Source: Tribonema minus
Taxonomy: Eukaryota; Sar; Xanthophyceae; Tribonematales; Tribonemataceae
Direction of reading: 5' to 3'
Assembly (NCBI GenBank): GCA_017506865.1
Contig: JAFCMP010000035.1
Location: 496,001-560,000 of the forward strand
Length of the DNA stretch: 64,000 nt
Below are positions 717-30,873 of this stretch, piece after piece (the stretch's first letter is position 1; every line of letters starts with the position of its first letter). A program made the translations under genes and the position numbers. The notes under the pieces are model-generated. The model saw only the letters and a program-made list of their open reading frames with translations, did not search any database and had not been told where the DNA came from.

Positions 717-3700
717 GACGACCGTCACCTCATGGCCGCGGAGGTGCCCAGCACGAGCCCCGACGTGCTGATCGTCGAGTCCACGTACGGCGTGCAGGTG
801 AGCGCTTCTGCGTGCGCTGCCGTTCTATCCTCAATTTGAACTTCAAGTATGAGCTCCGACGTGCTGATCGTCGAGTCCACCTACGGCGTGCAGGTGAGCA
901 CGCTGCACATGACTTGACCTTCTGGAACTGAAGTTCAGACTCTGGCACACTGCGGGCCCTGCCTGCATCAGAGGTCAAGTGCGCGGACACGCGGCTCTAG
1001 TACTTTGCGTATGCACGCGTTGCAGAGCCGGGCTTGTCTGTATGGCATGTGTGCGTGTGCTGCACGGACAACGGCAGGCTCCCTCGCAGCATTAGCTGCG
1101 CGTCACAGCCTGTGAGTGCGAATGTGTATGTGCCGCGGCTGTAGCAAGCTCGCTCGCCCGGGTGCAACGTTCGCGTGCGTGCCGCGGCACCAGCAGCGTA
1201 TTGGGCTGACGGAGACAGCGGCGGCGACAGCTGTCCTATCCGTCCCATCATGCGGCGCAGCCCTGTGGCTGAGGGCTACGAAACGGCGAACAGCTTCAGA
1301 GCCCTCGCGCTCAAATGCGTTCCGCTGTCCCAGAGAGTGGCGCGTGGTGACGCGAGCACGAACGCCATCAGCAAGCGCTGGTCGCAGACATCCTTGCATC
1401 CCTAGATCTTCTCGCGCATCGTATATTTTCCGATACTCGGTTTCGGGCGCACTGCCAAGAGTGCCCCGACTGGTTTCAAAAGCGCATTGACAAGCTGAGG
1501 GCTGCCAAGAGGCCCTGCGATCAGCTGGAGCTAGCGCGACCGTCATGCCCTGGTCTAGCCGGCATGGCAGCGCCTAAGAGCGCGCTAGACAAGACATGAG
1601 AAGCAGGGGTTAAGGATTTACCTGTCTTTGGCGCGCTTGGCGCGCAGCTAGTCGCGACGGCGCTCCACCTGATCGCAGGGCCTCTTGGCGGCCCTCAGCT
1701 TGTCAATGCGCTGTTGAAACCAGTCGGGGCACTCTTGGCAGTGCGCCCAAAGCCGACCTTCCCCGGGGAAATGGCGGTGGCAACCGTAGCACTCGTCGCT
1801 GGGAGGTGTCTTGGCCTTGTCGGTCTTGGACTGAAGAGGCGGGCGGCACATGCAATCCTGAGAGCCCAGCCCGTTGCACGTAAAGCGCGCACGCCTGCTG
1901 GGGGGCGGGCAGGCCCAGCACGAGCTGCTTGCCGCCCTACAACGTGGCCTTTTCGGGCATCTGCCCCCTACCCATCCCCCCTGCCCTCCCCCCCTCAATC
2001 ACCAAACACGGCATCGCCGCATGCGCAACGGTATGCGCTGTAAAAGTGTATGCACGGCATCTTCAGCCACTCCCCCCCTCAATCACCCAACACGGCGTCG
2101 CCGGACGCGCCACGGTACGCGCTGCATGTATTTATGCACAGCATCTTCAGCCATGGCGGCGCGCTTTCTCGACTGACCGTCGCCACGCGCGTCAGAGGCT
2201 GCATTCGCAACAGTATGTACTTCTATGCGCAGCATCCCCAGCCATGGCGGCGCATCTCCTTGACTGACCGCCGCCGCGCACGCCAGAGGCTGCATGCGCA
2301 ACGGTGCGTGGTGCATGCATGTATCCACAGCCATGGCGACGCATTCCCTTGACTGACCATCGCTCTGCGCGCGCGCCTCTGCCGCACCGCGCGCGCAGGT
2401 GCACAGCCCGCGCGAGGAGCGCGAGGAACGCTTCACGTCCACGGTCGCGCAGATCGTGCGGCGCGGCGGCCGCTGCCTCATCCCTGTGTTCGCGCTCGGT
2501 GAGTACTCGTCGTCGCGGACTGCTCTGCTCGCGTGCCTGCGACTGCACGCACGGCAATGGCGTGAGACTGGGCACGCTTGAAGTGCGGCGGCAGTGTTGA
2601 AGTAGCGCTTCACGTCCACAGCCGCGCAGATCGTGCGGCGCGGCGGGCGCTCCCTCATCCCCGTGTTCGCGCTCGGTGAATACTTGTCGGTGCGAACTTC
2701 GCGTGCGCGCGCCTGTGGACTACGGGCACGGCGATCTGGAGTGAGGGCAGCTTACGCAAACACTGACAGCCTCAGAGGTCAAATGCATGCGAGCACAACA
2801 TGAAGGGGGAGGGGGGGGGTCGGGCGCGCGCTTGAAGTGTGGCGGCAGTGCTGAGGTTGCACGCCGAGGCCTTTCTGCGCTGCTGCGGCACTGCTCTGAA
2901 AAAGCTGTGCGCGGGCGACAGCGCTGCCGCCGGCGCGCATCGTGCGCGATGGGTGTGCCAACTCTTCTGAGCACGCTGCTTCCTGGAGCATCTGTCAGTG
3001 CCGTCTGCATCCTGTCGCGCTGTGTTGCACACCCTGTGTGTCGGTCAACCCCGAGGCATCCATAGTCTATCGCCTGTCGGCGTGACACGGAGCCCCTAGT
3101 GGGTGACGTCGAGAACTGACGCGAGCCGAACTCACGCGCCGCTGCGTGCAGGGCGCGCGCAGGAGCTGCTGCTGATCCTGGACGAGTACTGGCAGGCGCA
3201 CCCCGACCTGCAGCATATCCCCATCTACTACGCGTCGCGCCTGGCCTCCAAGGTAGGTAGCGCCTGAGAGGTATACCTAGCCCAGTTGTCACATCCAACC
3301 CTAACGTTAACCCAAACCCCGACCTGCAGCACATCTCCATCTACTACGCGTCGCGGCTGGCCTCCAGGGTATGTAGGTAGTGCCTGAGAGGTAGGTAGCC
3401 CAGCTGTCACACCCTTGGTGCCGGCGCATCCCCATGTACGACGTGCAGCAGCTGGCCTCGAATGTAGACAACGCTCCAAAAGGTAGTAGCGCGCCCGTTG
3501 CTGCGGAAACATCATGCAATGTGTCACTGCAATCCGCGCCTCGCGGCTGGCTCCAAGGGAGAGCGCCGCTTTCAAGGTAGGCAGCACGTGCACCGGTCGT
3601 AGCGCACAGCTTGCCTGCAGCGTGCGCAATGGCTGCAGGCGTGACGGCGCTCAACCTGCAGCGATCGTCGATGCTGATGCCAGTGGTGAACGCGCGAGGG

Positions 3701-6700
3701 GGTTTCCATGCCTGCGCTGAGTCGCTTCCAGTTCACTCTCCCACAGCGCGCCTGCCTCGCTGCGGGTTGCTGCGATGTCGTGGCCACGAGGCAGCGGAGA
3801 TGCGCGAGCACGCGCGCTCCGCTGTGATGCCATGCCATTGTTGATTCATGCGCGCCCGCGACTATTTGTTAGGATTGGGGTTAGGACTAGAGTTAGGGTT
3901 AACGCTTTTGCCTGTGCTCACTCCCGTTGACCGGCCACCCTCTGCAGTCTGCCAACATGTCCAAGGCTTCGATGTGGTTTCGCTTGAGTTGATGTGGCAG
4001 GACGGCATGAACTGCCTTGGCGACATCTGTGCCGGGTGCTGTTCGGTGCCTGTACCGTCTGTTCCATCACGTACTGTGAGTCAAAACAGCAGAGTCAAGG
4101 AGCAATTGAGTGGTTCGTGGCAGTGCCGTCTATTTCATCACTCACTGTGAGTCTCAGACAAGCAGCGCAAAGGGACAATCTAGTGATTCACTGCAAGCCT
4201 CGCCCGCTCAATGCTGTGTTGTGTGCTGGCAGCGCCCGAGGCGCGCAAACTCACTTCAACTACTGCGCGCATGTGTCCCTTGCGCTGCAGGCCATCAGGG
4301 TGTACCAGACATACATCAACATGATGAACGCGCACATCCGCCGCCAGATGGACGTATCCAACCCCTTCAAGTTTAAGCACATCACCAACCTCAAGGTGAG
4401 CGGCGGGGCGATTGGTCGCGCCGCGTTGAGTCGCAGTGCTCAGCAACACAGGTCGCATGTGTTCTCACGCAACGAAAGGTCGTTTGGCATCAGATATGGT
4501 GCAACGGGATGGACACGAACTTTGCATGCTCTTTACGACGAATGGTGGACGCGGTGGGCGCTGGTCATCTTAAATGCCCCATTGCTCAGCTGCGTATGAT
4601 ACTGTACCCAAACTACACGTGTGCTGGCTGCGGGAGTGCAATGTGGTGTCGCTGCCTGCTGAGCGCGGAGCTCAACACTGCTGTGCGTCTGGCGCATTCA
4701 GTGCACCCAAACCAAGGCGCAGGCGTGCAGCAGATTGGAGCGGTGTGCCCGTCACCTGCAGCAGCCGCTGTGACAGCCGCAAACGCGGCTGGCCTCGCGC
4801 GCCCCGCGCGTGCACGAGCTGACGGCCCCTCGCGCGCTGCACGCGCCCGCATATATGCATGATGAAATCCGAGCATTATAATATATCACACCTTGACGCA
4901 TCGCATTTGGATGCTTTCAACGAACGCGCGCGCGCGCCCGTACACGCGTTACAATATCATGAACAGTTCTATCACATGAATGCTGTGTGCGGTACACGCG
5001 CGGCGATAGCTCACGGTTCCACTGTATGCCGCGCGCACGGTGCTCAGGGTATCGAGCACTTCCAAGACCTCGGCCCGAGCGTCGTCATGGCCAGCCCCGG
5101 CATGCTCCAGAGCGGCGTCAGCCGACAGCTCTTCGACAGGTACGTGGGCTAGTACGGTGGAACCCGTGATCTCGTCGCCCGCTGGCACGGGCGGCCCTTG
5201 CGCGATGTGCGATGGTGTATAGCTGTGTCATTGCCGATCACATAGGGCGAATGCATTGCATTCCTTCGACAGGTACCTGCGTGGGGGTCACGGGGCGAAA
5301 CCGCAACTCATCCGCCAGCGTCCGTCGTCCTTGCCCGATGCGTGATTATGTGCACTTGTGTCATCACCAATCGCATACAGCGAATGCAGCAGTGCGTCTC
5401 TTTAACAGGTATATGCTGGGGTCACGGAGCAAAACGGCAACTCATTCGCCAGCGCCAACGGTCCTTGCTCGATGCGCGTTGATGCGCAGCTGTGTCATTG
5501 CCGATCGCATGAGGCGAAGCAGCTTTGCGTCTCTTCGACAGGTACGCTGGGGTCACAGAGCAAAACGGCACTTCATCTGCCCTTGGTCGATGCGCGTCGA
5601 TTCACAGCTGTGTCATTGCCGATCGCATGCGGCGAATGCAGCCTGCGCGCTCCAACGTGCGTGGCGTAGTTAAAGTCGCGAGAAGCGGCGAGAGCACGCG
5701 CGCAGCGACTGTATCTACTGTCGCGCATCGAGACCACTGTGTCGTCGTCGTCGGCAGCGGCGTCGCACGTGCGTCCCACGCATGGCGCGGCGACTCTCGG
5801 CACGCGCGCTGAATGGCTTTGCTCTCCGCAGGCTGTATGCCAACGAGCATCCGCCAGCCGCCATGAGCGTCAGCACAACACTTGGCTCACACGCCCTGGC
5901 GTTGGGGTTAGGTTTAAGTCAGGGCTAGGGTCACGGTCAACGTGTGATCAACACCTGACCCGCTGGCCGTATCCGGGGTTTTGCGCAGGCCCTCTCGCAG
6001 GCGCGAGCGAGCCTGCAGGACGCGCGTCCCCTGAAGCGGGCTGCCACCTGAGTCAGTGTCGGGACTAGGGTTAGGGTTAAGATTAGGTGCGCCCCCGCCT
6101 CTTATCCGCGCGTGCGGCTGCTGACCCCGAACGCATCTTGTGACGCGCATGGAGCGTGCAGCTTCGCGATCTCTGCTGTGATCCGCCACTGGCGACTCTG
6201 CCGCTGCGTTTGCAACTTCACTTCATCCATGCTGATTAATTCCCCTGCTTCCCTCCCCCTCCCCCCCCCCCCCCCCCCCCCCTCGTGCATCTCTCGCGTG
6301 GTGCAGGTGGTGCACTGACGACAAAAACGGCGTGCTCATACCCGGGTACAGCGTGGAGGGCACGCTGGCAAAGAAAGTGAGTCACCACCTAGTTTCTTCG
6401 GTTAAAGTGAGAATGAGTTGCAATCGGTCTCAGGTGAACCGCTGCAAGTTGCTTGCGGTTAGAATCAGCATGTATCGTAGAGGTCTAGCCACAGCAAGTG
6501 CTCAGCGCGCTCCGCTCATCGCAAGATGCGCATCGTCATCAGGCGTTGACTCAAGGCCAAGGGCGTCTGCATGCGTCGCGGAGCACGCGGTGCAGTGGTA
6601 TAGGGTTAGGGTTAGGGGCTAACCCTAACCCTAACCCTCGCGAACTAGTCCTCGCTTGCACTTCGCCCTGCCTGCCTGTGGTTTTGCAGCTGACCGGCGT

Positions 6701-9700
6701 CACCTTCTGGTTTCTGCTTGGTGCTGCTGCGATTGTTGAAAGCATGACGGCAACCATCTCTCTGCGCGGCGGCGCCCGTGTCATCGCGCCAGATGCTGTT
6801 TGGGGCATGAACACGGTGCGCGAAGCCCCCCGCCGTCTGACGTGGTCGCACACCAGCGCTGCTCAGCATTGTCCTCCCTTACGCTGTATGATGCGGAATT
6901 CATCAAATAACGCAAGGGCACTGGCGCACTTGCGTCTGCTGAAGTGTGGCTGGGCTAACCAGTGCGATCGGGCAAAGTTGATGCGTGTGTACGCACATGC
7001 CCGTGAGCATGGGGGACCCAGTGGGCAGCCGGTGTCGCTATTTCCGCTTCATTTTGATGCAAGCACCCCCCACTACATACACACCTGAAGCTCTCCGCCT
7101 CATTGCGAAAGACTCACGCGCGATCACACGCTGCGAACGCGCCCTCGCAGATCTTGAGCGGCCCGGACGAGGTGACGCAGCCGGCGTCGCTGTTCTCGCT
7201 TCAACTAGATGCAAGCAACCCCATACCTACATACCTTCATCAAGCTCTCTGTCTGAGTAGAGAAGACTCACGCACGTCGCTGCTGTGCCTGCCCATGCGC
7301 GCGCGCTCTCACGTGTGCGCAGATCCTCAGCAGCCCGGACGAGGTGACATGCCAGCACCCTTACATGCATACCCGAAGCTCTTCGCCTGATCGCGTAAAC
7401 TCACGCGCATTATCCGCCCTGCCCCCGCGTGCGCACGCGCGCTCTCGCAGATCCTCAGCAGCCCGGACGAGGTGACGGGCATGGACGGGCGCATCCGCCC
7501 GCTGCGCTGCGGCGTAGAGTACGTGAGCTTCAGCGCGCACGTCGACTACGTAGAGGTACGTGCGTACGACGTACCATACTTGATCCACCAAGGATAACAC
7601 AACTTTCGGTCAAGAGTGCATACGCCCGCTGCGCTGCGGCGTAGAGTACGTCAGCTTGAGCGCGCACGTCGACCATGTCGAGGTACATGTCGAGGTACAT
7701 GAGTACGATATCATACGTTATGGAAACAGATCAAAAGATCGTAAAGCACAAGGTGACAGGTGTGGTGAGCCGGCAAATTGAATGCCTTCCACCAATCACT
7801 GTGGTCGCCGCTGTTGCAGTCGTTGGCCATGAGTCAAACAGTGCCATCATATCCACCATAGTCAAAAGACTTTCTACTTTATGCTCGAAATTCGTCAGTT
7901 TATAGATGAGATTTTGAGAAAAAGAAAAATTATCACAACCGTGATGCCACTCAAGACAATACAACTATCGATAGAGAGTGCGCGCGCTGTCGCCGCGCTC
8001 TATGAGCACCACCATGCTGCCGCGTACAAAAGGCGATGCGTTCCTCGGTAGCGCAGCGAGAGGGATAAATGCAGGTTTCGGGACCCCAAGAACGGGGGCA
8101 CCGCCGGCTCTGAGAGGGTCTCCCCCCGCAGGAATGAGGTACTAGGTGCGTCATCGTGCTCTCTGCAGCGATGCGCGGGCGCGCGGGGGTCGCGCGCCGA
8201 ACAACAGCGCTCGGCGGCGCTCACTGCTGGCATGCATACTGACAGCAGCGAGGACCGTCGTCTATTATCGTCGTCACTGCGGATGCGCGTCGACTGCATC
8301 AAAGTCCGCTCCCGGTGCACGCGCCATGGGTCGCTGGCGGAGGCGGTGCCAGACGCGAGTGCGGCTCAGGGTTGCGCCCTCAGAAGGAGGCCACATGCAC
8401 AAAGGCCTGATCATACTGTGTACGGCCTCGAGCGCATGTTCAACGAATCGCGTGCTGCGCCGTGGGCGACTGCACCTCGCGCGCTGGCACGGGCAGCAGC
8501 GCGTCATGCGCTGCCTTCGCCTGCGCGCTCTGGAAGCAGTGGCCGTCGGGGTGATGGGCTGTTGCTCGCATCGACTCTGTCCGGACGGTTTGCCACACGG
8601 GAGAAACTGGTCACCGGATTTAGGCTGCTGTTATGAGCGGAAGACCCTCAAGCGTTTGTGATTGTGCGCGAGCCCCACAGCGATGCACCATGTGGGGCCC
8701 GTAGGCCTGCGCCACGAGAGGTGCAGAGAGCGGCCTGGGCGGAATGGGTTTTCTCGATCCACCTTGCGTGCTAAACTTAGGGTTAGGGTTAGGGTAAGGG
8801 TTACGGGCGTTGGCAAACGCCTGGCAGGTGTTGAAACGTCAAGTGCCATGCAGCGCCCAGCATTCTGAGTCGCGACGTCGACCGGTGGCACACTCTGACT
8901 CCCCCCCCCCCCCCCCACACACACGCACATGCACTGCTCTGCAGAACAAGCGGTTCATGGACGCGACGGCGCCCGCCAACATTGTACTCGTGCACGGCGA
9001 AGCCAACGAGATGATGAGGCTCAGGGGCGAGCTGGTGAGTACGTAGGGGTATTTGTTCCCTGTGCTACCTGAATGTATACTTGAAGTATGGTGCATACTC
9101 CTTGAAGATGAGATGATGAGGCTCAGGGGGGAGCTGGTGAGCCTGAGGGGCCACGGGCGTGGCAGCGACGCGCTGCCTCTTTTGCGTACGATGGCTTTGC
9201 GCTGCCTCTTCTTGTAAGACATGCCTCTTCTCTTACCACACCTGATATGACCGTGCGCGGGGCCCTCGTAGGCACTGCGCCCCGCAGTTGTTCCAAAGTG
9301 CGCATGCACCTTGACTGCTAAATTGATGTTACTCCAGAGCGTAAACTGTTGAAGCGCTTTGATGCGGCATCTTCAGCATATACCTGTAACGCAAGTACAC
9401 GTCTTCAGCATGCCAGCAAGCACAGTGCGGGATCGCGCGAGGTCCCGATGGTCGCACGGCTGCTCACGCGGCTGCAGGGCCAGTAAGTGCTGAGACATGC
9501 GCTCAGAATGTATTGGATACCCTCACACGCGGGCGGCTGAGGCGGTGATGCCTGTGCGCGATCGTCCATCGCAGAAGCCTCTCGAGACGTTGCAACGTGA
9601 GCGGTGTTGCAATGCTCAGATGGCCACTGTGACGGGTTGCTCGAACGATGCCAAGCCCTTCTCCGTCTACCGGTCTGATTGAGAGCAATTGTCAGTGCTC

Positions 9701-12700
9701 ATCCAGGCAGCGCGGCGCTGTGCGCTTGACCGCTCTGCCCTGCCAGTATCCCAAAGCGTGCGCTGACTCTTGCCACAATACTCTGCTGCTGCTGCTGCTG
9801 CTGCTGCCGCCGCCGCCGCCGCCGCCGCCGCTGCTGCGCCGCAGGTGCGCAAGTACTCGCGCGTGCCCGCGGCCGAGCGGCCACAGGTGCTGGCGCCGCG
9901 CAACTGCCAGGAGATACGGCTTGAGTTCCACCGCGACAAGGTGCGTGTACGCCGCCGCGCGTTTATCTGCGAGTGCGCTACCGCTACAGCAGTCCGGCGG
10001 CGTGCGCAGATGCGCGGCATGGGCGCGCTGCTGCGAAGCGCGCTGCACGGGCACCACCGTCGCGTAGGCCGCCGTCACCTGCGGCATTCGGTGAAGCGGC
10101 GACACTGTCTGCTGGCAGTACAACGCTTTGACGGAGAGGGTACAGGTGCTGCGGCTGCGGTCGCCGCATCCTCCTGCGCGTTCGCAGCGGCTTGGCGTCC
10201 GCGGCACCGCCCGCCGCGCAGAAGCGCCGTCCGGGCTGCCCCAGCTCGCTGCGAACTGCGACACAGTGTGCGGCACTCACCTGCATGTTGCAACTGCAAG
10301 GCGAGCCGCGACGCTGCGCACCATATGCCCGCCGCGAACGTGCCTTTCAAAAACTTCACACCCAGATTTCTCTCTTCACAACCATGGTCCAGTTTCGCGC
10401 AGCGCAGCTCGCCTGCTGTGCTAGTGCTGCGCCCCCAATCCCCCGCCCCCCCCACCCGCCCCTCTCACGGCACGCGCCGGTTGCGCCCAGTCGACAGCTC
10501 ACGCGCTCCTGTCGGATGCCGTTTTTACCGTTTGTTTTGCCCTACTGCGCTCTTCCCCCCCCCCCCCCCCCCCCCCCGCGTGCGCGTGCAGATGGCCAAG
10601 GCCGTCGGGCGCCTGACGGAGACGCTGCGGCGGCCCGACGCGGCCGCCGTGGGCGCGCTGCTGGTGACCAAGGACTTCAACAACCGCCTCATGGCTCCGG
10701 AGGACCTGGAGACGTACACGCAGCTCAAGGTGCGCGCCCCGCGTGTGCGGGCTCTCTCTGCTGAGCACTGCTGCAATCGTCGACCAAACGCCGTTGAAGG
10801 CAGCGCCAGTGGCCGGTGAAACTGCGTGCACGCGCTGCAGCGGCAAGCGGCGGCGCATGCACTGTTGGCTGCCTGTTGCGTGTGCAGCGCTGCGCGGCGC
10901 GCGTGGTCGGCGTCTCCGCGGTCCGCGGTGAACTGCTGCATGGCGCCGCTCGGGGGGGTCTGCAGGACGGCGCAGCTGCTGCCGGCAGCACGCACAGATG
11001 GCAGTGCGTGGCAGGCTCTCGTCGCGCGTGACACACTGCTTCGGAATGCCGCCGTGCATCAGCATAATTCAGTAGACGGCAGCGCACTCCGCTGGGACAT
11101 GACGTTGCCCACGGTTGGTATCCTGTGCGCCAAGCCTTGACGTGATGTCCACAAACGATGACGTGCCAGCGCGCGCCTGCCCGGCCGCGCCTCGCATGCC
11201 TCGTTGCTAAGTCTGCCCCCGCCCCCCCCCCCCCCCCCCCCGTGCTGCCCCTTGCCACAGGTCGGCGGCGTGCGGCAGTCCCTGCGCGTCCCCTTCTACT
11301 CGTCCTTCGACGCGCTGCGGCTGTACTTTGCGGAGGTGAGGGTTAGGGCTAGGGGTAGTGCTAAGGCGTGGGGCCCACCGTGCTGCCACAGTCAAGCGGC
11401 ACCTTTCGAGCTCCACACCGCACAAGGAACACTTGCATGGGCGTTGTTGAGGCTTGCGCACCAGTGCCATGCTGCCTTGCAGAAACGCAGGCTGCTTGGC
11501 ACCGCAGGGCAGCCGCAAATCCGACAGTTTGAGCTCTGTGCGGGCGCACTGTACAATGTGCTTTTGCAGCATCGGTGCGCCGTGCGCACGGCATCCTCAA
11601 GCGCTTTCGCACGTGTAACATGCCAGCCGCCGGTTTGCGCAACTCACACAAGCTGGGTGCGCCCCGGACAGCACACCAGAGTGGTTTCTGCAAGCACACG
11701 GGGGAATCCATGAACCGTTGTTCAGAGTCAAACTTGAAGTTCATAGTCAATCTTGAAGTTACATCGCTGCACCGGCGTTCGCCTGCGCTCCGCAGGTCTA
11801 CGACGACGTTGTCGTGGAGAAGACGGGCGAGGCAACGGGCCGCATGTCCGTGCACGGCGCCGCCGTCACCGTCGACTACCCGCCCGTGCAGCAGGACGGC
11901 GCCGCCAGGTAATCATCCATGCTCATTAAAAACAAAAATGTCAGTAAACTCGTTGATTGATACACTGTCGACTACCCGCCCGTGCAGCAGAACGGCGCCG
12001 CCAGGTAATCACAAGGTTATTGAAAACAAAATCTTGCCAATTACATACTTTTCAAGTAAGTATTTTTGGTAGATAGAAAACGACAGATAGAAAACAAGAC
12101 GCCGCCAGTTGACCGCAAGCTTGTTAAACAAAATCTGTCACTTAATTGTTACTTCAACAAAATCTGTCAGTTAATTGTTACTTAGCAATGTAGTTCTGGT
12201 AGATGGAAAACAAAGAAAGGTCATGATTCATGATTAGTGCCCGCCCTTCACGCGCGTTCACGTGGTGCGCGTGCTCATCGGTCCTGCCTCCATGCCTCTC
12301 ATCTGGCGACATGGTGGGGGCGAGGGCACCTTCACCGCGTCGCACAGCCAGAACGACGTTGTATTCTTGCCGTACGTTTTGAGATTTCTCCCCAAGGGCC
12401 TCCAAGGACATGTCAGAGGTCACAACCTCATGTAGTGCGAAGATGCAGTCAAAACATAGTTGCAACAACGCGGGGCATTTGCAGCCGACGACCTCGCCCG
12501 TCTACACGCACAGTCCGTCTCGCCTCCAACCCCCCCACCCCCCTAACCCCTGCCCTTCCCCGCCCCCCTCCTCTCCCCGCTTCCCCCCTTGACGTGCAGC
12601 CTCGTCTTCGAGTGGAGCGCGTCGCCCGTCAATGACATGATCGCGGACAGCCTCATAGCGCTGGCCATGCAGGCGCAGACGACGCCGGGCGCGATACGCC

Positions 12701-19051: not shown

Positions 19052-21565
19052 TGCTTGCACAGCCGACATGTGGCCGGCGTACGCGAGCCAGTGCGGCACG
19101 TCGTGCGCAGTGTTCGACGCCGGGGCCCCCAACGGCTGCGTCGCGTCGCAGACGTACAAGGACCTGGGGCTGCCGGGTGAGCTCACGCTGCAGTCCTCGG
19201 GCACCGCCGGCGACGGCAGCTACTGCGCGTGAGTGCCCGCGCCCAGGTGGCTCGCTGCCTACTTGCTGCGCACGCATTGAGGGCTTTTAAAGTACTTTTT
19301 TGCCGGAGTGCACATGTCGGTAGCGACAGAGGGGCAAAGTCGGCGGCGTGTGCCGCTTGTTTGTCGATGAGAAAAGCGCGCCACATGGACGCGCCGCAGC
19401 GCGGTGGCGAGCCACACGGATGGGGTGCATGCCCCCAGCCGCGTGCGCGCTCGAGAAGGATGCGGTTGGCGTGACAGGGGCGCCAGATGCTGGCTGTGGC
19501 ACGGGGTTGTATTGTTACCTGCGATACTCGTGCATCCATGGGCGGCCACATTGTCGTACGACGAGTGCCAGGAGATTTGGGGTGCGGTTTCTGGCCGTGT
19601 ACTCAAGCAGCTGGCGACCCAGGACTAGCACGATACCTGAATGGCCGTTCAGATCTTGCGGCGGGGCGCACAATATATGCTTTCTGGAACCTGCAGACTG
19701 CCTGCGCTGAAACATCAGGCACGATGCGCACTACAGTTCCATGAGCTGTCGCCCGTCGCCACAAATGCACCGGCACACTCTTGCACGCAACGCTCCATGT
19801 GACCCCTCACATGCGCGGCTCAGAATTTGATGCCCCGCGCGTCCTCCTGTCGCCGCACACAACGCCATGTCGCGCTCTACTCATGGCTAGTGATGAGCGA
19901 CTCACAACACGCCTCCTGCGCGCGAACAAGCTCACTGTCAGCGCCTCCGCGTGCGTACCTGCACGCGCGCCCGCCGCCGCCGCCGCCACAGTCACTAGGA
20001 CGATGCAATGCTTGGCGACGAGCTCATGACGAAGAGTGAGGAGTTATTCATCACTCGCCTCACGTGCACGAGCTCATTTTCAGTTTGTGCGTGCGTATGA
20101 CCCCGCCGCGGCTGCTGCTGCTGCAGTCACTGGGACGTGGCAACGATCCACCGAAAAGCCTCAATGCTCAGCAGCCTGATGCGAACAGTCGTTGGCTTCT
20201 CATGAGGCTCGGCCCGCCTTGTTTGACGATGCGCGCAAGTAAACAACACCGACACACACGCTCATGGAGAGCGAGTTCTGACATGTCTCAACTCGCGTAT
20301 GAACCCGCTGCTGCCGCCGCCGCCGCAGGCACTGGGACGAGGCGACGCTCGGCGACGAGCTCATGACGCCCGTCATCGGCACGGGGGCGAACCCCCTGAC
20401 GGCCATAACCATTGCTGCGTTCGAGGATTGCGGTTACGAGGTCAGTGGCGCGCTGCGTGCTTGCAAAGCGGCGGCGTTAGAATGCGCCCGCATCGTCATC
20501 ACGCCTGCTATGATTTCTTGTCAACATTCAACTGATTATTGGAACTACAATTATCAGGTGAGAGATTGCTGTGCCTGATGCACGCTTCAATGGCGGACCT
20601 GCCGCTTGGAACTGCATTTGGGGCGTGCTCGGGCCGGGGTCTTGCGTGACAAAGGGTGACGGCATTGTCTTCTTGACATGTCGCGTGGGGTGGGATGGAT
20701 GGCAGGGTAGACGACTGCGGCAGCATTGGCCACGTTGTAGATCTGGTCGCATTTGCCATTCATGCGCACCGCCGCCTCTCACTCGCAGCGTGACTCTTCT
20801 GCCAGCTATGTGTACTGTCGTCCTGCCCGCTGCCAATGTCATCAGGTCAGAGATTGCTCTGATGCGAGTTGAAGTTTCTCGCACTGTGTGACTGTTGCGA
20901 TGCATGCCTGGCACGTCTGACGTCCCATTGCGTGAAGGCCTCTAACCCTAAACCTAACCCTAACCCTAAGGCGTGGGACCTAGTAGCTACGAGGTCAGTG
21001 GTTAGTGGCGCGCTGCGTGCTCGCGCCGCAGCGGCGGTTGCGTTGTTGGTACTGCAGGTGGCTCATTGACAAGCTCGGTCCGGGGGGGCCTTGCGTGACG
21101 AGCGCGCGGGCTTCGGCTTCTTCTTGACTCTTGTGGGGGGTGAGATGACATGCATGGCAGGGTAGGCCACCGCGGCAGCATGGCATTGCCCCCCGCAGTG
21201 TAGATCTGGCTGCATGTGCCATTGAGACGTATGCGCACCGCCGCCTCTCACTCGCAGCATGACCCCTCTGCCAGCAATGTGTACTGTAGTCCTGCCAGCT
21301 GCCGACGCCAGCGCTGCCCCCCTGTCGCCGCAGATCTCCCTGCCGCCGTCATGAGCTCTGCGCACTGCATCATAGGCTCACACCCGCTCCTCCCGTGCTA
21401 CTCCACGTCGTGTGTGCGCCGCAGGTATCGTACGCGACAGCGGAAGACATCGCTCTCATCAGCCCCGTGGCCGCGGGCGCGAAGCAGTCGCCCGTCAACA
21501 GGGCGCTGCGGCAGCGGCGCCGCGCGCTGACGGCGCCCCCCCGCGTCTTCCGCAACGCCGTCTAG
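14614..21565 (+). CDS. Secreted zinc metallopeptidase, leishmanolysin-like (M8 type), copy 1
   Basis: Predicted 395-residue secreted or surface endopeptidase. Exons: 14614-14742, 15488-15827, 16501-16588, 17376-17508, 18203-18281, 19063-19228, 20329-20440, 21425-21565; all phases agree. Residues 1 to about 28 form a signal peptide. Residues 44-113 are a Ser/Thr/Pro/Ala-rich linker. KFAIQLVKVGDSD (from residue 114) opens the family's N-terminal domain. Zinc site: HEMGHALGFS with H247, E248 and H251; third ligand H313 in HWDEATLGDELM, 62 residues later; Met-turn M324. Cysteines at about 267, 271, 282 and 311 could form disulfides. The C-terminal exon is Arg-rich. The H-E-x-x-H, distant HWxE and ELMT pattern fits M8 rather than matrixins. 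Start chosen because the only good signal peptide joins in phase. Its neighbour is a tandem paralogue. Confidence 0.85.
15839..15875 (+). repeat. Interstitial CCCTAA tract
   Basis: About five CCCTAA-type units lie a dozen bases after the donor at 15828. They are followed at about 15890-15900 by a short echo of the exon end and donor (GCCGTCAGGTGCGCG). Confidence 0.9.
17234..17345 (+). repeat. Minisatellite, unit like ACTGTGAATGCGCGATT
   Basis: About six imperfect copies of an 18-24 base unit lie in the intron before the 17376 exon. They end about 30 bases short of the acceptor. Confidence 0.8.
17573..17850 (+). repeat. Direct repeats rich in CAAGTCAG, intron 4 of copy 1
   Basis: Two to three copies of a unit of roughly 115 bases contain CAAGTCAG, AGTTGCAGCG and a block starting TTGCAGTGCGCAGAAT. 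There is no coding sense and no splice-site echo. Confidence 0.7.
19985..20160 (+). repeat. Exon-head echoes before exon 20329-20440
   Basis: Near 19987-20035 and 20122-20150 the acceptor plus the first bases of the downstream exon (HWDEATLGDELMT region) appear in damaged form. Both copies read GTCACTRGGACG after the AG, which matches the paralogue's exon start (TCACTGGGACG at 29761) better than this gene's own GCACTGGGACG. They may therefore preserve an older version of the exon. Confidence 0.75.
20560..21310 (+). repeat. Diverged direct repeat and exon-tail echo in last intron
   Basis: About 270 bases near 20570-20830 match 21045-21310 with many substitutions; shared blocks include TGGCAGGGTAG and GCGCACCGCCGCCTCTCACTCGCAGC. 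Between them, at 20986-21040, is an echo of the 20329-20440 exon end (TACGAG, donor GTCAGTG) plus about 40 bases of intron. A CCCTAA tract lies at 20943-20969. Confidence 0.8.
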
Positions 21566-23197: not shown

Positions 23198-26100
23198 ATG
23201 GTGCCCACATTACAAAAACGCGTGAGCTGCATAGCCACGGCTTTGGTGCTGGCGTGTAGTGCATCGCATGGAGCAGCACAATCTGGATGCACCGGCTGCG
23301 CTGGCGATCGCGGATGGCCAGAAGCTGGCGCAGAAGGCGCTCAGGTACGCGCCGTGTTCTCTTCTGATGTCAGAAGCAGTGTGACTGCACGTACTTTTGT
23401 CTGGTAGGAAAATTGGGTAAAATCAAATTCGAGGCAGGCCGGAAGATATCTCTAGGTGTACTTCGCGTGAGCCAGCATCTCGACAAGACCGTGCTTCGAA
23501 ACTTGTTGCAATCACATTGCTTGGTATCAAGACGTTCTACTGCGCAGCTGCTCTGAGTGCTATATCTATGTCTGCGGCTTCAAGTAGGCTCCAACAGTCA
23601 TTGATCCTCAAGTACGGAGGTGCGTGACTTCTTTGCCTGTCTGCTACATGGACAATCTGAGCCATGAGCATGTGTTGCGTGCGCTAATAATTCTTGTACT
23701 CCTGATTCATGAATAAAGTAAGCTACAGTAATTACTGGTGCTCCCCATTATGATCGGTTTTCTGTTGAAGACTTTCACACACACACACACACACACAGTT
23801 CTTGCTGCATCCTCTGCAGTTATAAATGATAGATGTCCAGGGCGAAGTGTGCACGGCAGCACGAGAGCACCAATTCGGCACAGAGCCACCATAATTGTAC
23901 ACGTAGTTTTTCGCATGCACTGTCCGTCACTGAACACAGACAGGCGAACTTCAACAACCACGCCACTGAGTTGCAGCCACGGCAGCATGCTGTTCGACAC
24001 CGCATCCTCAACAACGGAGCGTCACGCCCCCGCTGCGCTTCCACTCCCAGGCGCCGCGCGCACCGCAACAGGTGACGCTCAGCGACCGGCGGTTACACTC
24101 TCCGGACGAGCGCCTGCGGCTCGTCAATGCGCAGGGCTTCCACTACTTCGGCGACCTGACGCGGGACGCGCCCTCCGGTGACGGCAGCGCGCCAATTTCA
24201 AGTCCAACTTCAAGCCCCACTGCCGCGCCCGCCGGCGTCGCGGCCGCGGGCGACAGTCCGCCGCCGCCGCCGCCGCACGGCCACAATAAGAAGCCCAAAA
24301 GGACGACAAGAAGAAGAAGAAGCATGGGGGAAGAAGCAGCATGGGGGGAGGGGGGGGGGCAGGCGCGGGCGCGCAGGGGGCGGGCGGGAAGAAGCAGGTG
24401 GAGAGTCACTTCAGCATCCAGCTGGTGAAGTTTGGCGACAGCGACCCCGCGTATGACAAGTTCATGGAGGCGGCGCGTGACCGCTGGCAGAACGTCATCG
24501 TGGGCGACGTCTACGACATCCGCGGCGTGTCCTCAGGTGCGCTGAAGGGGGCTGGGGGGGGGGGGGGGGGGTCGTGCCGCGCGGGCGCGAGATGCCGCGC
24601 GGGCGTGAGTGCACACGAAGAGTAACGTCTACGTCGCTCGCGCACGAAGGTGTGGTCTGGGCCGGTCATTGCGCAGCGGTCGCGCCGCTTGGCGTGCGCG
24701 CGTGTCGTCGCAAGGTCGGCAGCGCCTCCGATGGCTGCTGGAAGCGCGCGGCCTCTGGCCGTGATGCTTCCTGTACGATCCAGTCGTGTCAAACAGCGTG
24801 TCGCGCGTGGTGAGGCCTGCCACTGCGCGGCCGCCGCCTGTGCGTCCGCCCGAATAGTGAACGCATCGCCTCCAGCGCGCGTCGTGCATCAGCTCCGCGT
24901 GTCGCATGACTTGGAAGCGGCGCCGCGACGGGTGTTCGCGTGGCTGCCCCGTGCCCTCGCTGCGGCGGCGCTCCTGCGGCCGCGCCGCGCTGCCGCGTGC
25001 AGGCGCCAGCCACGTAGCGCGCAGCGCATCAGCGCAACGCCCATATCTCTTCCAGCGGCGTGCGCCTCTGCCCCCTTCATCCTTGAGGATAGATCTGTGA
25101 CGGTTTCCTGTTGCTGATCGATGCCTCGTTCCGCTGCGCGCCTGCAGACCAACTGTTTCTGGACGTCTTCAAGGGCATTAAGCCCACGCCGGAAATCCCC
25201 GGCGTCGTCGACATCGACGACATCGTCATTGGATACCAGTGAGTCTTGTGCGACATCTGCGTATGCGCACGCCGGCGCCGCGCGCTGCGTCGCCTCGTTT
25301 CGGGAAGGTTGTGGCCGTTGTGTGATTGTTCAAAAGCTCGCGTGACCGCCCCAGCTTATGCGCACTGTTTCGCTACATAAAATGGAGCATTGCGATATTT
25401 AACAGACCCCCCCCCCTCCCTCCCCCTTGTGTAGTCTTGTGTGACATCTATGTGTGCGTACGCTGGCGCCGCGCGCTGCGTTGCCTCATTTCGGAGGGTT
25501 TGTTGTGACCGTGGTGTCGTTACCAAGCGCGTGTGACCGCTCCAGCTTATATGTGTTCTCAATGTTTTGCTGCATGTGTGGAGCATATTACAGCCGCCTC
25601 AACCCCCCCCCCCCCCCCCCCCCTTCCGCTCCCCGGTTGCGCACCGCTGGAATCCACAACATCTGCCTTACCTCTCCCCTCTAGCTCTCCCGCAAGGCAG
25701 CGGGGGCAGTGACAGCATCAGCCTTTGCCAACCGCAGATTGTGCGGCGTGCCTGAATGCGGTTCTGCAACTCTCGCTGCGCATCAGGTTTGCCAAGATGG
25801 ACGGCAGAGGGGAAGTGCTCGGCGGCACCTTCATCATACAGTCGCGCACGGACGACATCGGCGCGTTCCCTGTGTCCGCGGCCATGACTTTCGACATTGC
25901 GGTGAGCAGCAGCAACTTCAACTTGAAGTATTTCATTGCGGTCCCTCATCGTACAGTCGCGCGCGAACGACGTTGGCGCGTTCCCCGTGTCTGCGGCCAC
26001 ACATTTTTTTGACATTGCGGTGTGCAGCAGCAACTTCAATTTGAAGTCCTTCATTGCAGATGCGCGCCGGGGGGAGGGGGGGGGGGGGGGGGGGGGTATG

Positions 26101-29100
26101 TGGCATCACTTTAGGACACGCTCGCGTTGCTGTGAGTAACTTCAACTCGAAGCATAACTTCATGCAGGTTTGAGGGGGGGGGGGGGGGGGGGCGGGGGAC
26201 ACGCGCGGCAATTTTGGTCAAGTAGCGGGTACAGAAGCGGCAGCATCAGTTATGATTGATTAAGGACGCACGTGATGAGCCATGCTGTTGCCGCAACCGC
26301 GGTGAGTGCCAATGGTGCCATGGCACAGGTGGGACGCGGCATGACGTGCCACGTATGGGGAAGTTGTACTTCACGTAATCGTCCCACAGCCAGGTCCTGC
26401 CAGCGCAGCGCAACGTCGGGTAGTTGCCGCCCTTCCGTCTACGGGCAGGCTGATGTACACAGCATATGCACAGCGGTCCGGCATTTCTGCGGCATCGCGG
26501 CCGATGCGACCGTAGTTGTGGAACAGCGGCTGGTGATTTGCATTGCTCACTTCACTTTCATGACGTGAGACTTGTTGTCACTGATGCGGCTGTAGCTGTG
26601 GAACAGCGGCTGGTGAATGCTTTGCTAGTTTTTCGTGACGCAAGACTTGTTGTCACGCTGACCCTTTACGTCGCGCCCCCCCCGTGCTGTTCCGCTGCTG
26701 CCCCCCCCCATCAGGACGTCAAGGCGATGGCGAAGGACGGCTCATTCGAGACGGTGGTGCTGCACGAGATGGGCCACGCGCTGGGCTTCTCAGGTGAGTC
26801 TTTGCGGAAGCCTCAAGACGAATGCACGGTTCGTTGTGCGCTTCACGGAGGGGGAGGAACACAAACCACATGAGTGCAGCAGGGTCTGGTGTTCTTGCAG
26901 GCGGCACGGGCCCGGTGCGTTGCGCGGTCGTCTCAGCAGCCCACGCACAGCGTTGCTGCTGTACTAGAGTGCGAGGCTCGTTCGTCGTTGCCTCGCGCGC
27001 GTGTGCTGCAGAGCCTACGTGAGCGCAGCGGTGTGCGTCGTGCATGTCGTCAGCGCACACCACGTCACCCGCGGTGGGCGCGTTTGCAGCAGCGCGCGAG
27101 TCGCGGCGCTCACGACTGCGCCACGTGCACACGGCTGCGCGTGTGCGCACGCCAAACGACAGGGCAGACGTCAAACTCGAAAATCAGCGCTCAGCTCGCA
27201 CGCTTCGCCTGCCCGTCAACTGGCTCAGCGAGAGCGTATCTTGGAACAGGGTGTGCTGTTGCGGCCTTTCGGGGCTTGCCCTGGCCCCAAACCCTGACCC
27301 TAACCCTAGAAGCCCTGCTCTACCACTGAAGGCAGGGCACCACGCGCCGGGGGGCGTGTGAAACCGCTGTACACTTGTAGTACACGGCAGCGCTCGTGAC
27401 AACAGGCTTGGACTCCTTTCCATAAGCGCTTTTGAGTCAGCCGCGGACAGCGCGCTTGTCAGGGGTTGCCTCGCCCCAGAAGAGCCCCCCCGCTTCGCGC
27501 CGTGCATGTGCCGAGGGGGAGCGGTTTGAAGCTGCAGTGCACAGCGGCATCCGCGCACGGCGGCAGCGGGCCGCATGAATGTCTGCTGCTGGCAAAGCGC
27601 ATGCACACGAGCCGTGCCGCGGCATCGGGATTAGGGTTGGGGCTAGGGTTAGGGTCTGAGCAAGTTGGCTGCGTGTGACCGGGGCAGTCTTCAGAAATCT
27701 GCCGGAGGCCGCGCTCTCAGGGTCAGGGTCAGGGTTAGGGTTAGGGTTAGCGCACCGCCGCGCACGACGCGACGCGCTCCTCTCCCTGGCCCCCGTGCGC
27801 GTGCCGCATGGAGCACACAGCGGCGTTATCGTCGGTATGCGTTGATGCGGCCTGTTCTCCGCCCTCGTGCGCGCCTCTGTGTCAAACTTCACACTTGAAG
27901 CGCGCGTCGCTGAGCAGCGCTGCCTGCTCGTCGCGCATCTCTCGCGCCGCCGCAGCGGACATGTGGGCGTCCTTCAAGAGCAAGTGCGGCAAGACCATTG
28001 AATTTGAAGCACGTCTTTGTTCTCATCATTGGCATACGTCGGTGCTGCCCGCCCCCTTCGCCCTTGCACGCCTCTGTGTCAAACTTCACACTTGAAGCGC
28101 GCGTCGCTGAGCAGCGCTGCCCGCTCGTCGCGCATCTCTCGCGCCGCCGCAGCAGACATGTGGGCGTCCTTCAAGAGCAAGTGCGGCAAGACCATTGAAT
28201 TTGAAGCACGTCTTTGTTCTCATCATTGGCATACGTCGGTGCTGCCCGCCCCCTTCGCCCTTGCACGCCTCTGTGTCAAACTTCACACTTAAAGCGCGCG
28301 TCGCTGAGCAGCGCTGCCCGCTCGTCGCGCATCTCTCGCGCCGCCACAGCAGACATGTGGGCGTCCTTCAAGAGCAAGTGCGGCAAGACCATTGAATTTG
28401 AAGCACGTCTTTGTTCCCATCATTGGCGTGCATCGGTGCTGCCCGCCCCCTCCGCCTTCGCACGCCTCTGTGTCAAACTTCACACTTGAAGTGCATGCAT
28501 CCCCACGATGCTGAGCAGTGCTGCCTGCTCCTCGCATCTCTCGTTTGCAGCGGACATGTGGGCGTCCTTCGAGAGCAAGTGCGGCAAGACGTGCAAGGTG
28601 TTTGACGCGGGGACTCCGCACGGCTGCAAGGCGTCCGACAAGTACAAGGCGCTCGGCCTGCCGGGACAGCTCGCGCTGGACCACTCCGGCAAGCCCAAGG
28701 ACGGCAGCTACTGCGCGTGAGTGCCGCCGCGGCAACGTGGTCTCGGTCCATGTCCCTGATGCGCGTGCCCTTGCTAGGCGGTGTGCACATAGCCGCAGCG
28801 CTCGCTGAATGTACATGTGCGCAGCATTCGCGGCGCTTGCTGTAAGGTCGGATTGCGTCGCGCGCTCGCCCGCACCTGCGCCGGCGCAGCTCACACTGGA
28901 CCACTCCGGCAAGCCCAAGGACGGCAGCTACTGCGCGTGAGTGCCGCCGCTGCAGCGGCGCGATTCCGGCCTGCATATCTGGTTTGCACACGCACTTACT
29001 GGGCGCAGCGCACACAGCCGCAGCGCTCGCTGAATATATGTGTGCGCAGCATTCGCGGCACTTGCTGTGAGGTCGCATCGCATCGCGTCGCGTCGCGCGT

Positions 29101-30873
29101 GACACAACCTGCGCTGGCTACTGCAAAGTGCTGACGACGCAGCGCCGCCCGCTGCTGTGCGCGCACGCGAGATGTGAGATGGTCACGCGCGGCACGCTGT
29201 GCCGCCGCTGCAGCGGCGCGATTCCGGCCTGCATATCTGGTTTGCACACGCACTTACTGGGCGCAGCGCACACAGCCGCAGCGCTCGCTGAATATACGTG
29301 TGCGCAGCATTCGCGGCACTTGCTGTGAGGTCGCATCGCATCGCGTCGCGTCGCGCGTGACACAACCTGCGCTGGCTACTGCAAAGTGCTGACGCAGCGC
29401 CGCCCGCTGCTGTGCGCGCACGCGAGATGTGAGATGGTCACGCGCGGCGCGCTGTGTTCCCTGGGCATCGTGTGTCTTGGCCGCGGGATGCGCTACTGCG
29501 CCGCAGACATGTAGCATTCGCGCGCAGCCCATGCGCGCCTGCGACACGTCTCTTGGCGTCGTGCCCAGCATGCATGCTTTACAAGTCGTTCTGGAACACG
29601 TAATCACCCCTTGTGAGATTTGCTGTGAGGATTCGGACCAGGATCACAGTGACCCCTCCTCCAGGCAGGCACCGCATCTCCACCGCCGACCCTGCGTGCG
29701 CGCCGCTGACCGCTGGTACTATTTGCACCCTGCCCCCCCTGCTGTTCTTCGCGCACGCAGTCACTGGGACGAGGCGACGCTCGGCGACGAGCTCATGACG
29801 CCCTACATGAACACCGGGGGGGCCAACCCCCTGACGGCCATAACCATTGCTGCGTTTGAAGACATGGGTTACACGGTGAGAGATTGCTCTGATGCGAGTT
29901 GAAGTTTCACGCGCCTCGCCGTGTGACTGTCTTGCGATGCATGCCAGGCACGTCTGACGTCCCACTGCGCGAAGGCCTCTAACCCTAAACCTAACGCCAA
30001 CCTTAAGGCGTGGGACTTGAGCCATCAGGTGCGACCATGGGTGTGCTCTGAGCGCTGATGCTATTTGAGAGGCTTCACATCACCCACTGATGAAGGGTTA
30101 GGTTTAGGGTTAGGGCTATGGCGCGCTGAACCCGCACCCCCGTGCGCAGCACGCCAACGCTGCGCAACAGCGCTGTTGCGCGCTGTCGTCAGGATCGACC
30201 GCTCTCTCATCAGGATCGACCGGTTTTGGTCCCCCAGCTGACTGCCCCCATTGCTCATGTGGATCACCCACCTCCTGCGCGACAGAGGTTGAGGCAGTGA
30301 GTACATGGAATGAGACGGTGTGCCTTTGAGTTTGCAATGCGGGCAGCCAGAAGCTGCCTTCAGCTGGAGGCCTTGTGGCCATGGTACGCAGTACACACAC
30401 AGGGATATGTGTTTGAATTGAACGAGTACATGCTGTGACCAGCCAGTGCAGGATGCCCCCGTGGCGACGCTCCTCAACGCAGCTGCTCTCATGCCCGCCG
30501 CCGTGCATGTGGCATCACCCCCGCTCCCTGTCGGCCCGTAGGCACACGCTGTGCCCCAGCCGCCCGCTGCGCAATACAGACATCCCCTGCTTTTGTCACT
30601 GCAGCAGCTGTGGCCCTGGGAGCAGGTCTAGCCCCAACCCTAACCCTAGTCCGCGGCGCGCGCGCAACGCCCAGCCCAACTCCCGCGTGTCTCGACCCTC
30701 ACACGCGCTGCTGCCTCCGCGTGCTCGCGCAGGTGAACTACGACGCCGCCGACAGCGCTGAGCTCATCAGCCCCGCGCCCGCCAACTGGCGCGAGCACAC
30801 CGTCAGCCGCATGCTGCAGCGCCGCCGCCAGGCGCCGCAACACGCGCCTGGGCGCCTCGGGCCGCAGATCTAG
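23198..30873 (+). CDS. Secreted zinc metallopeptidase, leishmanolysin-like (M8 type), copy 2
   Basis: Tandem paralogue of the gene at 14614. Exons: 23198-23344, 24072-24536, 25148-25238, 25787-25901, 26715-26793, 28551-28716, 29761-29875, 30733-30873. Exon 1 encodes a signal peptide (residues 1 to about 28) and a short Cys-containing segment. Exon 2 has a piece absent from copy 1 (LHSPDERLRLVNAQGF), a proline/lysine/glycine-rich linker, then the shared HFSIQLVKFGDSD domain start. The active site is intact: HEMGHALGFS, then HWDEATLGDELMTP with the Met-turn. Exons 5, 6 and 8 match copy 1 in length and all shared junctions match in phase. Oddity: within exon 2 the frame before and after the poly-G run at 24339-24359 differs by one, so either a base is missing in the sequence, a tiny intron exists, or the copy is damaged. 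Confidence 0.8.
24335..24362 (+). other. Frame conflict at poly-G run in copy 2 exon 2
   Basis: Upstream codons (to about 24335) are in one frame. The QLVKFGDSD part and the phase-1 donor at 24536 are in another. Exon 2 is 465 bases where 1 modulo 3 is required. A G10 run here makes a homopolymer length error the simplest reading. Confidence 0.6.
25832..26053 (+). repeat. Exon-tail echo with palindrome, after exon 25787-25901
   Basis: About 110 bases spanning the exon end, donor and first 40 bases of intron (25832-25945) recur at about 25947-26053. The echo keeps TTCGACATTGCG-like coding but has an expanded T run. Both copies carry ACTTCAACTTGAAGT or the variant ACTTCAATTTGAAGT directly after the donor region. 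Confidence 0.9.
27720..27750 (+). repeat. Interstitial TTAGGG tract
   Basis: GGTCAGGG units grade into three TTAGGG units in the intron 26794-28550. Others in this intron lie near 27286-27308 and 27631-27656. Confidence 0.85.
27872..28550 (+). repeat. 197-base tandem array of exon-head echoes
   Basis: Units start at 27872, 28069 and 28266, and a partial fourth at 28463 leads into the real exon at 28551. Each of the three echoes contains an acceptor and the first 40 or so bases of exon 6 (ADMWASFKSKCGKT), then breaks off at ATTGAATTTGAAG instead of continuing into TGCAAGGTG. Each unit also holds CTTCACACTTGAAG. Units differ at only a few positions, so the array is young. Confidence 0.95.
28887..28940 (+). 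repeat. Exon-tail echo of exon 28551-28716
   Basis: The last 50 exon bases (LALDHSGKPKDGSYCA) recur at 28887-28936 with the same GTGAGTGCCGCCGC donor and almost no change. Confidence 0.95.
28943..29455 (+). repeat. 258-base near-identical tandem duplication
   Basis: Copy one runs 28943-29200 and copy two 29201-29455, with only a handful of differences, some of them 3-base length changes. It follows directly on the exon-tail echo. Confidence 0.95.
29876..30010 (+). repeat. Intron segment shared with the paralogue
   Basis: From the donor on, about 130 bases (GAGAGATTGCTCTGATGCGAG and onward, including a CCCTAA tract near 29980-30006) closely match 20845-20985 in the equivalent intron of copy 1. 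Confidence 0.85.

What the first reader, a model, noticed from the sequence alone, without database searches (positions are those of the whole stretch)
717..12010. Introns filled with copies of the neighbouring exon edge ('exon echoes')
At least seven CPSF3 exons are followed or preceded by damaged copies of their own edge including the splice site (856, 2606, 3317, 5131-5650, 7150-7350, 7618, 9110, 11963). The same happens in both metallopeptidases, PSMB1 and the PsbQ-like gene. Exons themselves are not duplicated whole; the copies always straddle the exon-intron boundary. I know of intron birth by tandem duplication of AGGT segments, but not of a genome where so many introns carry boundary copies. 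It looks like a general intron-growth process and would create ladders of decoy splice sites.
Basis: partly seen in the sequence, partly recalled or inferred. Interest (0 to 1): 0.9.

Follow-up and report, generated by a model that had tools for sequence, protein, structure and literature searches.

The report
Exon-edge copies left inside algal introns
In the yellow-green alga Tribonema minus about one in five sampled exon edges has a decaying copy, splice site included, in the neighbouring intron, most likely the scar of short local DNA duplications that survive only where they do not break the coding sequence.

Summary
The copies are real. All eight cited CPSF3 places hold either a 32-141 bp repeat of a neighbouring exon edge (82-97% identical) or a ladder of its splice site. 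The organism is Tribonema minus. In the window plus 20 regularly spaced 10-kb stretches, 34 of 141 donor edges and 27 of 146 acceptor edges have a copy in their own flank, against 0 of 81 exon centres and 0 of 705/730 other-gene pairings; 16 of 114 intron-interior probes also have one. Without the window, edges are copied 2.8 times as often as positions inside the same introns (gene bootstrap 2.1-4.3); simulated slower decay gives only about 1.1-1.2-fold. Mismatches by codon position fit non-coding copies decaying one-sidedly. No donor-acceptor homology marked intron birth in 91 introns. Best reading: recurrent local duplications, median offset 144 bp, probably from break repair; those inside exons are removed by selection, boundary ones persist because one copy is protected. 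A boundary hotspot is not excluded. Copies often keep GT (34 of 43) or AG (34 of 42); use in RNA is untested.

The parts
717..797 (+). CPSF3 exon 1 of the chain traced here (the gene starts before the window)
   Evidence: translation matches P0001 at 100%
851..899 (+). copy of the donor edge of exon 717-797, offset 96, ends at intron +6
   Evidence: 755-803 vs 851-899, 96%
2399..2498 (+). CPSF3 exon 2
2606..2745 (+). copy of the donor edge of exon 2, offset 177 (70 exon + 68 intron bases)
   Evidence: 82%
3152..3252 (+). CPSF3 exon 3
3316..3414 (+). copy of the donor edge of exon 3, offset 116; a weaker further copy at 3428-3467
   Evidence: 85% and 78%
5048..5139 (+). CPSF3 exon 5
5192..5642 (+). 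array of about 133-bp units carrying copies of the exon-5 donor edge at about 5263, 5397 and 5530
7025..7348 (+). two copies of the acceptor edge of exon 7 upstream of the real acceptor
7451..7555 (+). CPSF3 exon 7
7618..7689 (+). copy of the donor edge of exon 7, offset 127
   Evidence: 90% over 72 nt
8945..9034 (+). CPSF3 exon 8
9110..9141 (+). copy of the donor edge of exon 8, offset 102, ends at intron +5
   Evidence: 97% over 32 nt
11796..11908 (+). CPSF3 exon 12
11963..12031 (+). copy of the donor edge of exon 12, offset 96
   Evidence: 89% over 71 nt
19973..20148 (+). two copies (19973-20031, 20093-20148) of the acceptor edge of the first metallopeptidase exon 20329-20456
   Evidence: 86% and 80%
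25943..26057 (+). copy of the donor edge of second-metallopeptidase exon 25787-25901, offset 115, nearly contiguous
   Evidence: 84% over 116 nt
27857..28590 (+). array of about 197-bp units: acceptor-edge copies and, last, the real edge of the second-metallopeptidase exon ending at 28716
28880..29456 (+). copy including the donor edge of that exon, offset 220
   Evidence: 82% over 580 nt
   Evidence: 84% over 88 nt
59546..59852 (+). ladder of donor-edge copies after the PsbQ-like exon 59328-59464 (name not tested), offsets 133, 257, 381

Best explanation
The echoes are decaying products of frequent short local duplications (copy offset 10th-90th percentile 71-326 bp, median 144) that hit genes and noncoding DNA alike. 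A duplication inside an exon is removed by selection. One inside an intron goes unnoticed. One across an exon-intron boundary leaves a working exon on one side and puts a dead copy of its edge, with splice site, on the intron side. The exon copy stays conserved while the intron copy drifts, so these pairs remain recognisable longer than intron-only pairs. Repeated rounds give ladders and lengthen introns. Shown: the repeats, their distribution over edges, centres and interiors, the one-sided decay by codon position. Inferred: that the duplications come from end joining after fill-in of staggered breaks, as described for rice insertions; that the whole boundary excess is longer survival; and that the copies are not used in splicing.
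For: Edges, centres and other genes: 34/141, 27/146, 0/81, 0/705, 0/730. Intron interiors are duplicated as well, 16/114. Direction as duplication predicts: donor copies downstream 32, upstream 2; acceptor copies upstream 23, downstream 4. Decay by site class, all copies: donor exon positions 1/2/3 mismatch 8.0/8.7/15.2%, intron 19.9%; acceptor 8.2/7.3/12.7%, intron 14.3%; a simulated non-coding copy beside a constrained exon gives position 3 about 1.7 times positions 1-2. The clearest young cases are head-to-tail: L023 391 bp at 99.7% with no spacer, window 38204-38329 (61 bp offset, 98%), window 27857-28590. The two tandem metallopeptidase genes of the window carry edge copies at different exons (20329 in the first; 25787 and 28519 in the second), so these copies probably postdate that gene duplication. 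Donor and acceptor pairs are 68-97% identical, unlike an assembly duplication.
Against: Boundary excess without the window is 2.76-fold (20 observed against 7.2; gene bootstrap 2.06-4.34; p 0.008 even against 1.5-fold), more than simulated decay gives (1.10-fold with whole-exon units excluded; detection 0.74 against 0.63 at the oldest ages simulated there); it needs a further survival advantage or a hotspot. Many high-identity pairs have a spacer: only 2 of 13 pairs at 93% or more align over at least 0.8 of their offset, so simple contiguous duplication is not seen in most of them. Intron divergence is 2.4 times (all donor copies) to 3.6 times (nearest donor copies) that of codon positions 1-2, above the simulated 1.4-1.8; intron misalignment may inflate this. 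Junction microhomology was not measured.
Confidence: 0.72

Rival explanations
1. A boundary-directed process: duplications or templated copying start preferentially at exon-intron junctions (for example at nucleosome edges, R-loops or U1-bound transcripts), so introns grow from their ends.
For: 2.8-fold excess over the same introns' interior without the window, against 1.1-1.2-fold simulated decay advantage; three CPSF3 copies end at intron +5 to +7, the edge of the donor consensus; copy offsets cluster at 100-200 bp (58 of 104).
Against: Interior intron probes are copied too (16 of 114); protection of one copy from larger rearrangements, not simulated, could add to the decay advantage; ends at +6 are also where constraint on the real donor ends, and 34 of 50 donor rows run more than 10 nt into the intron. 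Fisher test of donor edges against any-direction intron probes without the window is not significant (22/107 against 10/81, p 0.17).
Confidence: 0.19
2. The copies are functional: alternative exon ends or regulatory decoy splice sites kept by selection.
For: GT kept in 34 of 43 and AG in 34 of 42 copies; in nearest donor copies the exon-derived part is better preserved than the simulated neutral ratio.
Against: Mismatches fall at codon positions 1 and 2 at about half the position-3 rate, the one-sided neutral value; reading from the exon into the copy meets a stop in 21 of 27 cases; the annotated CPSF3 protein matches the exon chain without the copies. Nearest copies under 90 nt are rare (2 of 52 against 17 of 57 noncoding pairs, p 0.0003), as if close decoys are harmful rather than useful.
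Confidence: 0.06
3. Assembly or annotation artefact.
For: The reads behind the assembly could not be examined.
Against: Copies are 68-97% identical to the edge, with indels, and recur in loci of several contigs; 13 of the 28 exons with donor copies lie in two conserved genes, CPSF3 (5) and a myosin (8).
Confidence: 0.02
4. Introner or transposon-like elements that carry exon edges.
For: A transposon-like family with inverted arms lies in CPSF3 intron 1; the motif ACTTCAANTTGAAGT is over-represented (1048 against 118 for its reversal).
Against: Edge probes match none of five random other-gene flanks each (0 of 705 and 0 of 730). The genome search with 717-2000 lists no match to 717-1436 except itself, but it did not list the local copy either, so it is weak for 49-bp pieces. 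TTGAAG lies near echo ends in 17 of 95 against 10.9% by chance.
Confidence: 0.01

Closest known systems
Tandem or partially tandem insertions of 10-1000 bp from break repair in rice (Vaughn and Bennetzen 2014, seen only as described in passages of PMC7407515)
   Same: Local, mostly 70-330 bp offset, tandem or with spacers, source within a few hundred bases.
   Different: There recognised as insertions in rice; here mostly old, decayed, and recognised through the conserved exon edge. Repair mechanism not tested here.
Internal gene duplication crossing exon-intron boundaries (Gao and Lynch 2009, known only through citations in PMC3443670 and PMC4974935; the potato RdRp case, passages of PMC4974935)
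   Same: Duplicated segment crosses an intron-exon boundary and carries the splice site with it.
   Different: The potato case created a new intron; here existing introns lengthen and the extra edge stays inside. I could not compare the density (about one edge in five) with another genome.
Intron gain by tandem duplication of AGGT segments (Rogers model; Hellsten 2011; passages of PMC3443670 and PMC4974935)
   Same: Duplication of a stretch holding a splice-like site.
   Different: Predicts donor flank homologous to acceptor flank in register; 0 of 91 introns show it.
Small tandem duplications by CST-Pol alpha fill-in at breaks (PMC8355091, abstract and section list only)
   Same: Candidate route for short tandem duplications.
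   Different: Shown for Cas9-induced breaks in human and mouse cells; no test in this alga.

Membership tests
Local tandem duplication by break repair (rice type) | duplicated segment of 10-1000 bp copied next to or near its source | tested here: met
   104 non-redundant pairs, sought at offsets 25-700; 10th-90th percentile 71-326, median 144
Local tandem duplication by break repair (rice type) | copies contiguous head-to-tail when young | tested here: inconclusive
   several clear contiguous cases, but only 2 of 13 pairs at 93% or more align over 0.8 of the offset; choosing by high identity favours short conserved blocks
Local tandem duplication by break repair (rice type) | microhomology or fill-in signature at junctions | not tested
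   too few young junctions in the letters available
Intron gain by AGGT tandem duplication | donor flank and acceptor flank homologous in register | tested here: not met
   0 of 91 introns reach score 8; shuffled-pair control 1.5%, i.e. about 1.4 expected; births too old to leave homology would be missed
Introner or transposon-borne introns | the same element in many unrelated introns | tested here: not met
   edge probes against five random other-gene flanks each: 0/705 and 0/730; one search adds only weak support
Mutually exclusive or tandem duplicated exons | whole exon with both splice sites, coding constraint on the copy | tested here: not met
   whole-exon pairs at 4 of 150 exons; codon-position pattern of a non-coding copy
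Functional alternative splice sites | use in transcripts | not testable with these tools
   no RNA data

The most novel reading that the evidence does not exclude
Exon-intron junctions are true duplication hotspots in this alga: a repair or transcription-linked process repeatedly copies about 100-200 bp across the junction into the intron, so introns lengthen from their ends and carry graded ladders of spare splice sites.
Probability: 0.2. Interest if true: 0.78.

Novelty: new variant of a known kind. Interest (0 to 1): 0.5.

Why it matters
How existing introns get longer is, to my knowledge, less documented than how they are gained or lost. Here a constrained exon serves as a fixed reference against which each intronic copy can be dated by codon position, so the tempo of local duplication and its cost near splice sites become measurable in one genome. 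The deficit of copies closer than about 90 nt suggests a testable spacing limit for competing splice sites. If the boundary excess holds in near-identical events, it would point to a junction-specific mutational process.

Tried and rejected
Motif-driven copying: TTGAAG/CTTCAA was noted beside several CPSF3 copies; across 104 pairs it lies within 25 nt of the four kinds of copy end 3, 9, 10 and 6 times against 7.0 expected, and near echo ends in 17 of 95 against 10.9% in the control; dropped. Intron birth: 0 of 91. Light-harvesting paralogues L012/L013 as an insertion test: none of 8 gaps of 12 nt or more was a clear duplication of its flank (best 0.75 identity, for a 12-nt C-rich gap); uninformative. 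The donor bias seen in CPSF3 is not general (28/143 donors to the right, 22/146 acceptors to the left). The ribosomal-RNA search for the organism did not complete; the organism came from CPSF3.

Rows dropped before counts: exons with coding score under 8 (244 kept on both strands, 150 after removing overlaps in favour of the higher score); this rule lost CPSF3 exon 1 to an antisense prediction (window 729-807), and the score cut lost CPSF3 exons 4, 5 and 6, so two exons with known copies are not in the counts, and some of the 150 are surely wrong. Repeat pairs under 38 bits or with dinucleotide entropy under 2.6 were dropped, and offsets under 30. Four rows (exon part present, identity 0.00) are misalignments inside overlapping arrays; one search realigned the rows, but its gap counts still reflect such cases, so only substitutions are quoted. 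Some predicted ends are wrong (7559 for 7555; 28519 where the sequence and the paralogue suggest about 28551).
Full report
WHAT WAS CLAIMED AND WHAT IS THERE. The window is C35:496001-560000 of a 158-Mb assembly in 554 contigs. The 563 residues coded by 14 CPSF3 exons traced here match the annotated CPSF3 of Tribonema minus (P0001) at 100%; the contig length given there, 1,537,782, is that of C35. A self-alignment of the window finds the claimed copies at the cited places (ladders). Six are donor-edge copies found as BLAST pairs, at offsets of 96-177 bp; exon 5 is followed by an array carrying three further copies of its donor edge, and exon 7 is preceded by two copies of its acceptor edge.

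IS IT MORE THAN CHANCE, AND IS IT GENERAL. I took 20 stretches of 10 kb at regular spacing from four long contigs, chosen without regard to the stretches' content, and trained a codon-based exon finder starting from CPSF3. It recovered 10 of the 14 CPSF3 exons exactly (not an independent test, since they seeded it); the other four had a wrong end. High-confidence exons: 150. Probes of 60 nt were aligned to 1.2 kb of non-exonic flank on either side: donor edge 34 of 141 with a copy, acceptor edge 27 of 146, exon centre 0 of 81, intron interior 16 of 114; against flanks of other genes (five random ones per probe) 0 of 705, 0 of 730, 0 of 405 and 0 of 570. Without the window: 23 of 107, 22 of 111, 0 of 70, 10 of 81. 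Exon centres were probed only in exons of at least 140 nt. The phenomenon is unevenly spread: 8 of 10 donors in L022, 0 of 12 in L020. L022 encodes a myosin by Pfam (two exons tested), so its exons rest on a conserved family. L020 has several introns of only about 45-51 nt, which leave no room for such copies.

BOUNDARY PREFERENCE. In introns of at least 400 nt between high-confidence exons, donors are copied in 18 of 62 and acceptors in 12 of 62, against 4.9 and 5.7 expected from positions inside the same introns. Without the window, which was picked for this very feature, 10 and 10 of 40 against 3.4 and 3.8: 2.76-fold, gene-level bootstrap 2.06-4.34. Without the window and L022 the ratio is 3.2, on only 9 events. 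A part is expected. When one copy is held by selection the pair stays recognisable longer: in simulation the donor advantage is 1.10 overall, with whole-exon units excluded, and detection is 0.74 against 0.63 for ages up to 0.3 substitutions per site. The simulation has small indels only; large deletions and further duplications hit both copies of an intron pair but only one copy of an edge pair, which could bring the expected factor towards two. That step is inference. A hotspot is not excluded. The any-direction Fisher comparison without the window is not significant (22/107 against 10/81, p 0.17); against one direction, taken as half, 5/81, p is 0.006.

WHAT THE COPIES ARE. Exon-derived parts of all donor copies differ from the exon by 8.0, 8.7 and 15.2% at codon positions 1, 2, 3, and intron-derived parts differ by 19.9%; for acceptors 8.2, 7.3, 12.7 and 14.3%. 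Simulated non-coding copies beside a constrained exon give a position-3 to position-1,2 ratio of about 1.7 and an intron ratio of 1.4-1.8. The codon pattern agrees. The intron ratio is higher than simulated for donors (2.4 for all copies, 3.6 for nearest copies) and near it for all acceptor copies (1.8; nearest 2.5); intron misalignment, faster intron change, or extra preservation of the exon part could explain this, and I cannot separate them. GT is kept in 34 of 43 donor copies (5 changed, 4 gapped) and AG in 34 of 42 acceptor copies (7 changed, 1 gapped), roughly what drift at the exon-part rate gives, so decoys are numerous and not specially purged. Reading from the exon into the copy meets a stop in 21 of 27 cases.

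HOW THEY AROSE. Copy offsets have median 144 bp; 58 of 104 lie between 100 and 200. The clearest young cases are contiguous head-to-tail repeats, such as L023 6296-7077 (391 bp, 99.7%) and window 38204-38329; the 197-bp array around 27868-28491 is another. Other high-identity pairs have spacers (only 2 of 13 pairs at 93% or more align over 0.8 of their offset). A review passage on rice reports tandem, partially tandem and near-tandem duplications of 10-1000 bp from break repair (PMC7407515), which fits both kinds. Copies nearer than 90 nt are under-represented at edges: 2 of 52 nearest copies against 17 of 57 noncoding pairs, consistent with selection against close decoy sites, although minisatellites among the noncoding pairs could contribute. 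In 91 introns no donor-acceptor homology in register was found, so these introns show no trace of birth by AGGT duplication. Local repeats cover 18.9% of 72,187 intron bases.

VERDICT. A real, common and well-marked pattern. It is best read as ordinary local duplication made visible at exon edges by selection, with a boundary excess worth testing. Four searches of the paper library that named Tribonema, or combined tandem duplication, boundary and intron length, listed no paper whose title or abstract start describes this (listings only, the papers were not opened); subscription journals are mostly outside that library, and the genome paper of this alga was not found in it. No other eukaryotic genome could be put through the same test here, so I do not claim that the density is exceptional.

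Noticed in passing
genome-wide; e.g. window 25915-25929 and 35756-35770: The odd palindrome ACTTCAANTTGAAGT occurs 1048 times in the genome against 118 for its reversal; TTGAAGT is 0.68 per kb in noncoding DNA and 0.19 in exons of the sample. Not clearly tied to duplication junctions; origin unknown.
   Followed up: partly
window 6601-6640, 8777-8803, 15839-15877, 27719-27750, 34056-34085: Short interstitial telomere-type repeats (TTAGGG) are frequent in introns and spacers: GGGTTA 0.57 per kb noncoding, 0.03 per kb exon. They may mark repaired breaks.
   Followed up: partly
window 1437-1832: A transposon-like repeat with two inverted arms (74%) lies in a CPSF3 intron: three other loci at 91-95% and many at 72-75%.
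   Followed up: no
window 20441-20979 and 29875-30016: Between the two tandem metallopeptidase genes, the sequence that begins an intron in the second gene (29875) lies about 404 nt inside the corresponding intron of the first (20845), directly after ...CAG: an intron apparently extended or replaced at its donor end.
   Followed up: partly
L031:1042-5051 and L032:4275-8284: Two stretches about 300 kb apart on contig C334 share 4,010 bp at 99.98% identity, a recent repeat.
   Followed up: no
L020 (minus strand, 997-6435 in reverse coordinates): A predicted gene with several introns of about 45-51 nt, in a genome where the median sampled intron is 774 nt.
   Followed up: no
P0121, P0122 and P0007: Metagenome proteins 58-62% identical to this myosin and CPSF3 suggest related algae in public metagenomes; their contigs could polarise intron copies.
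   Followed up: no
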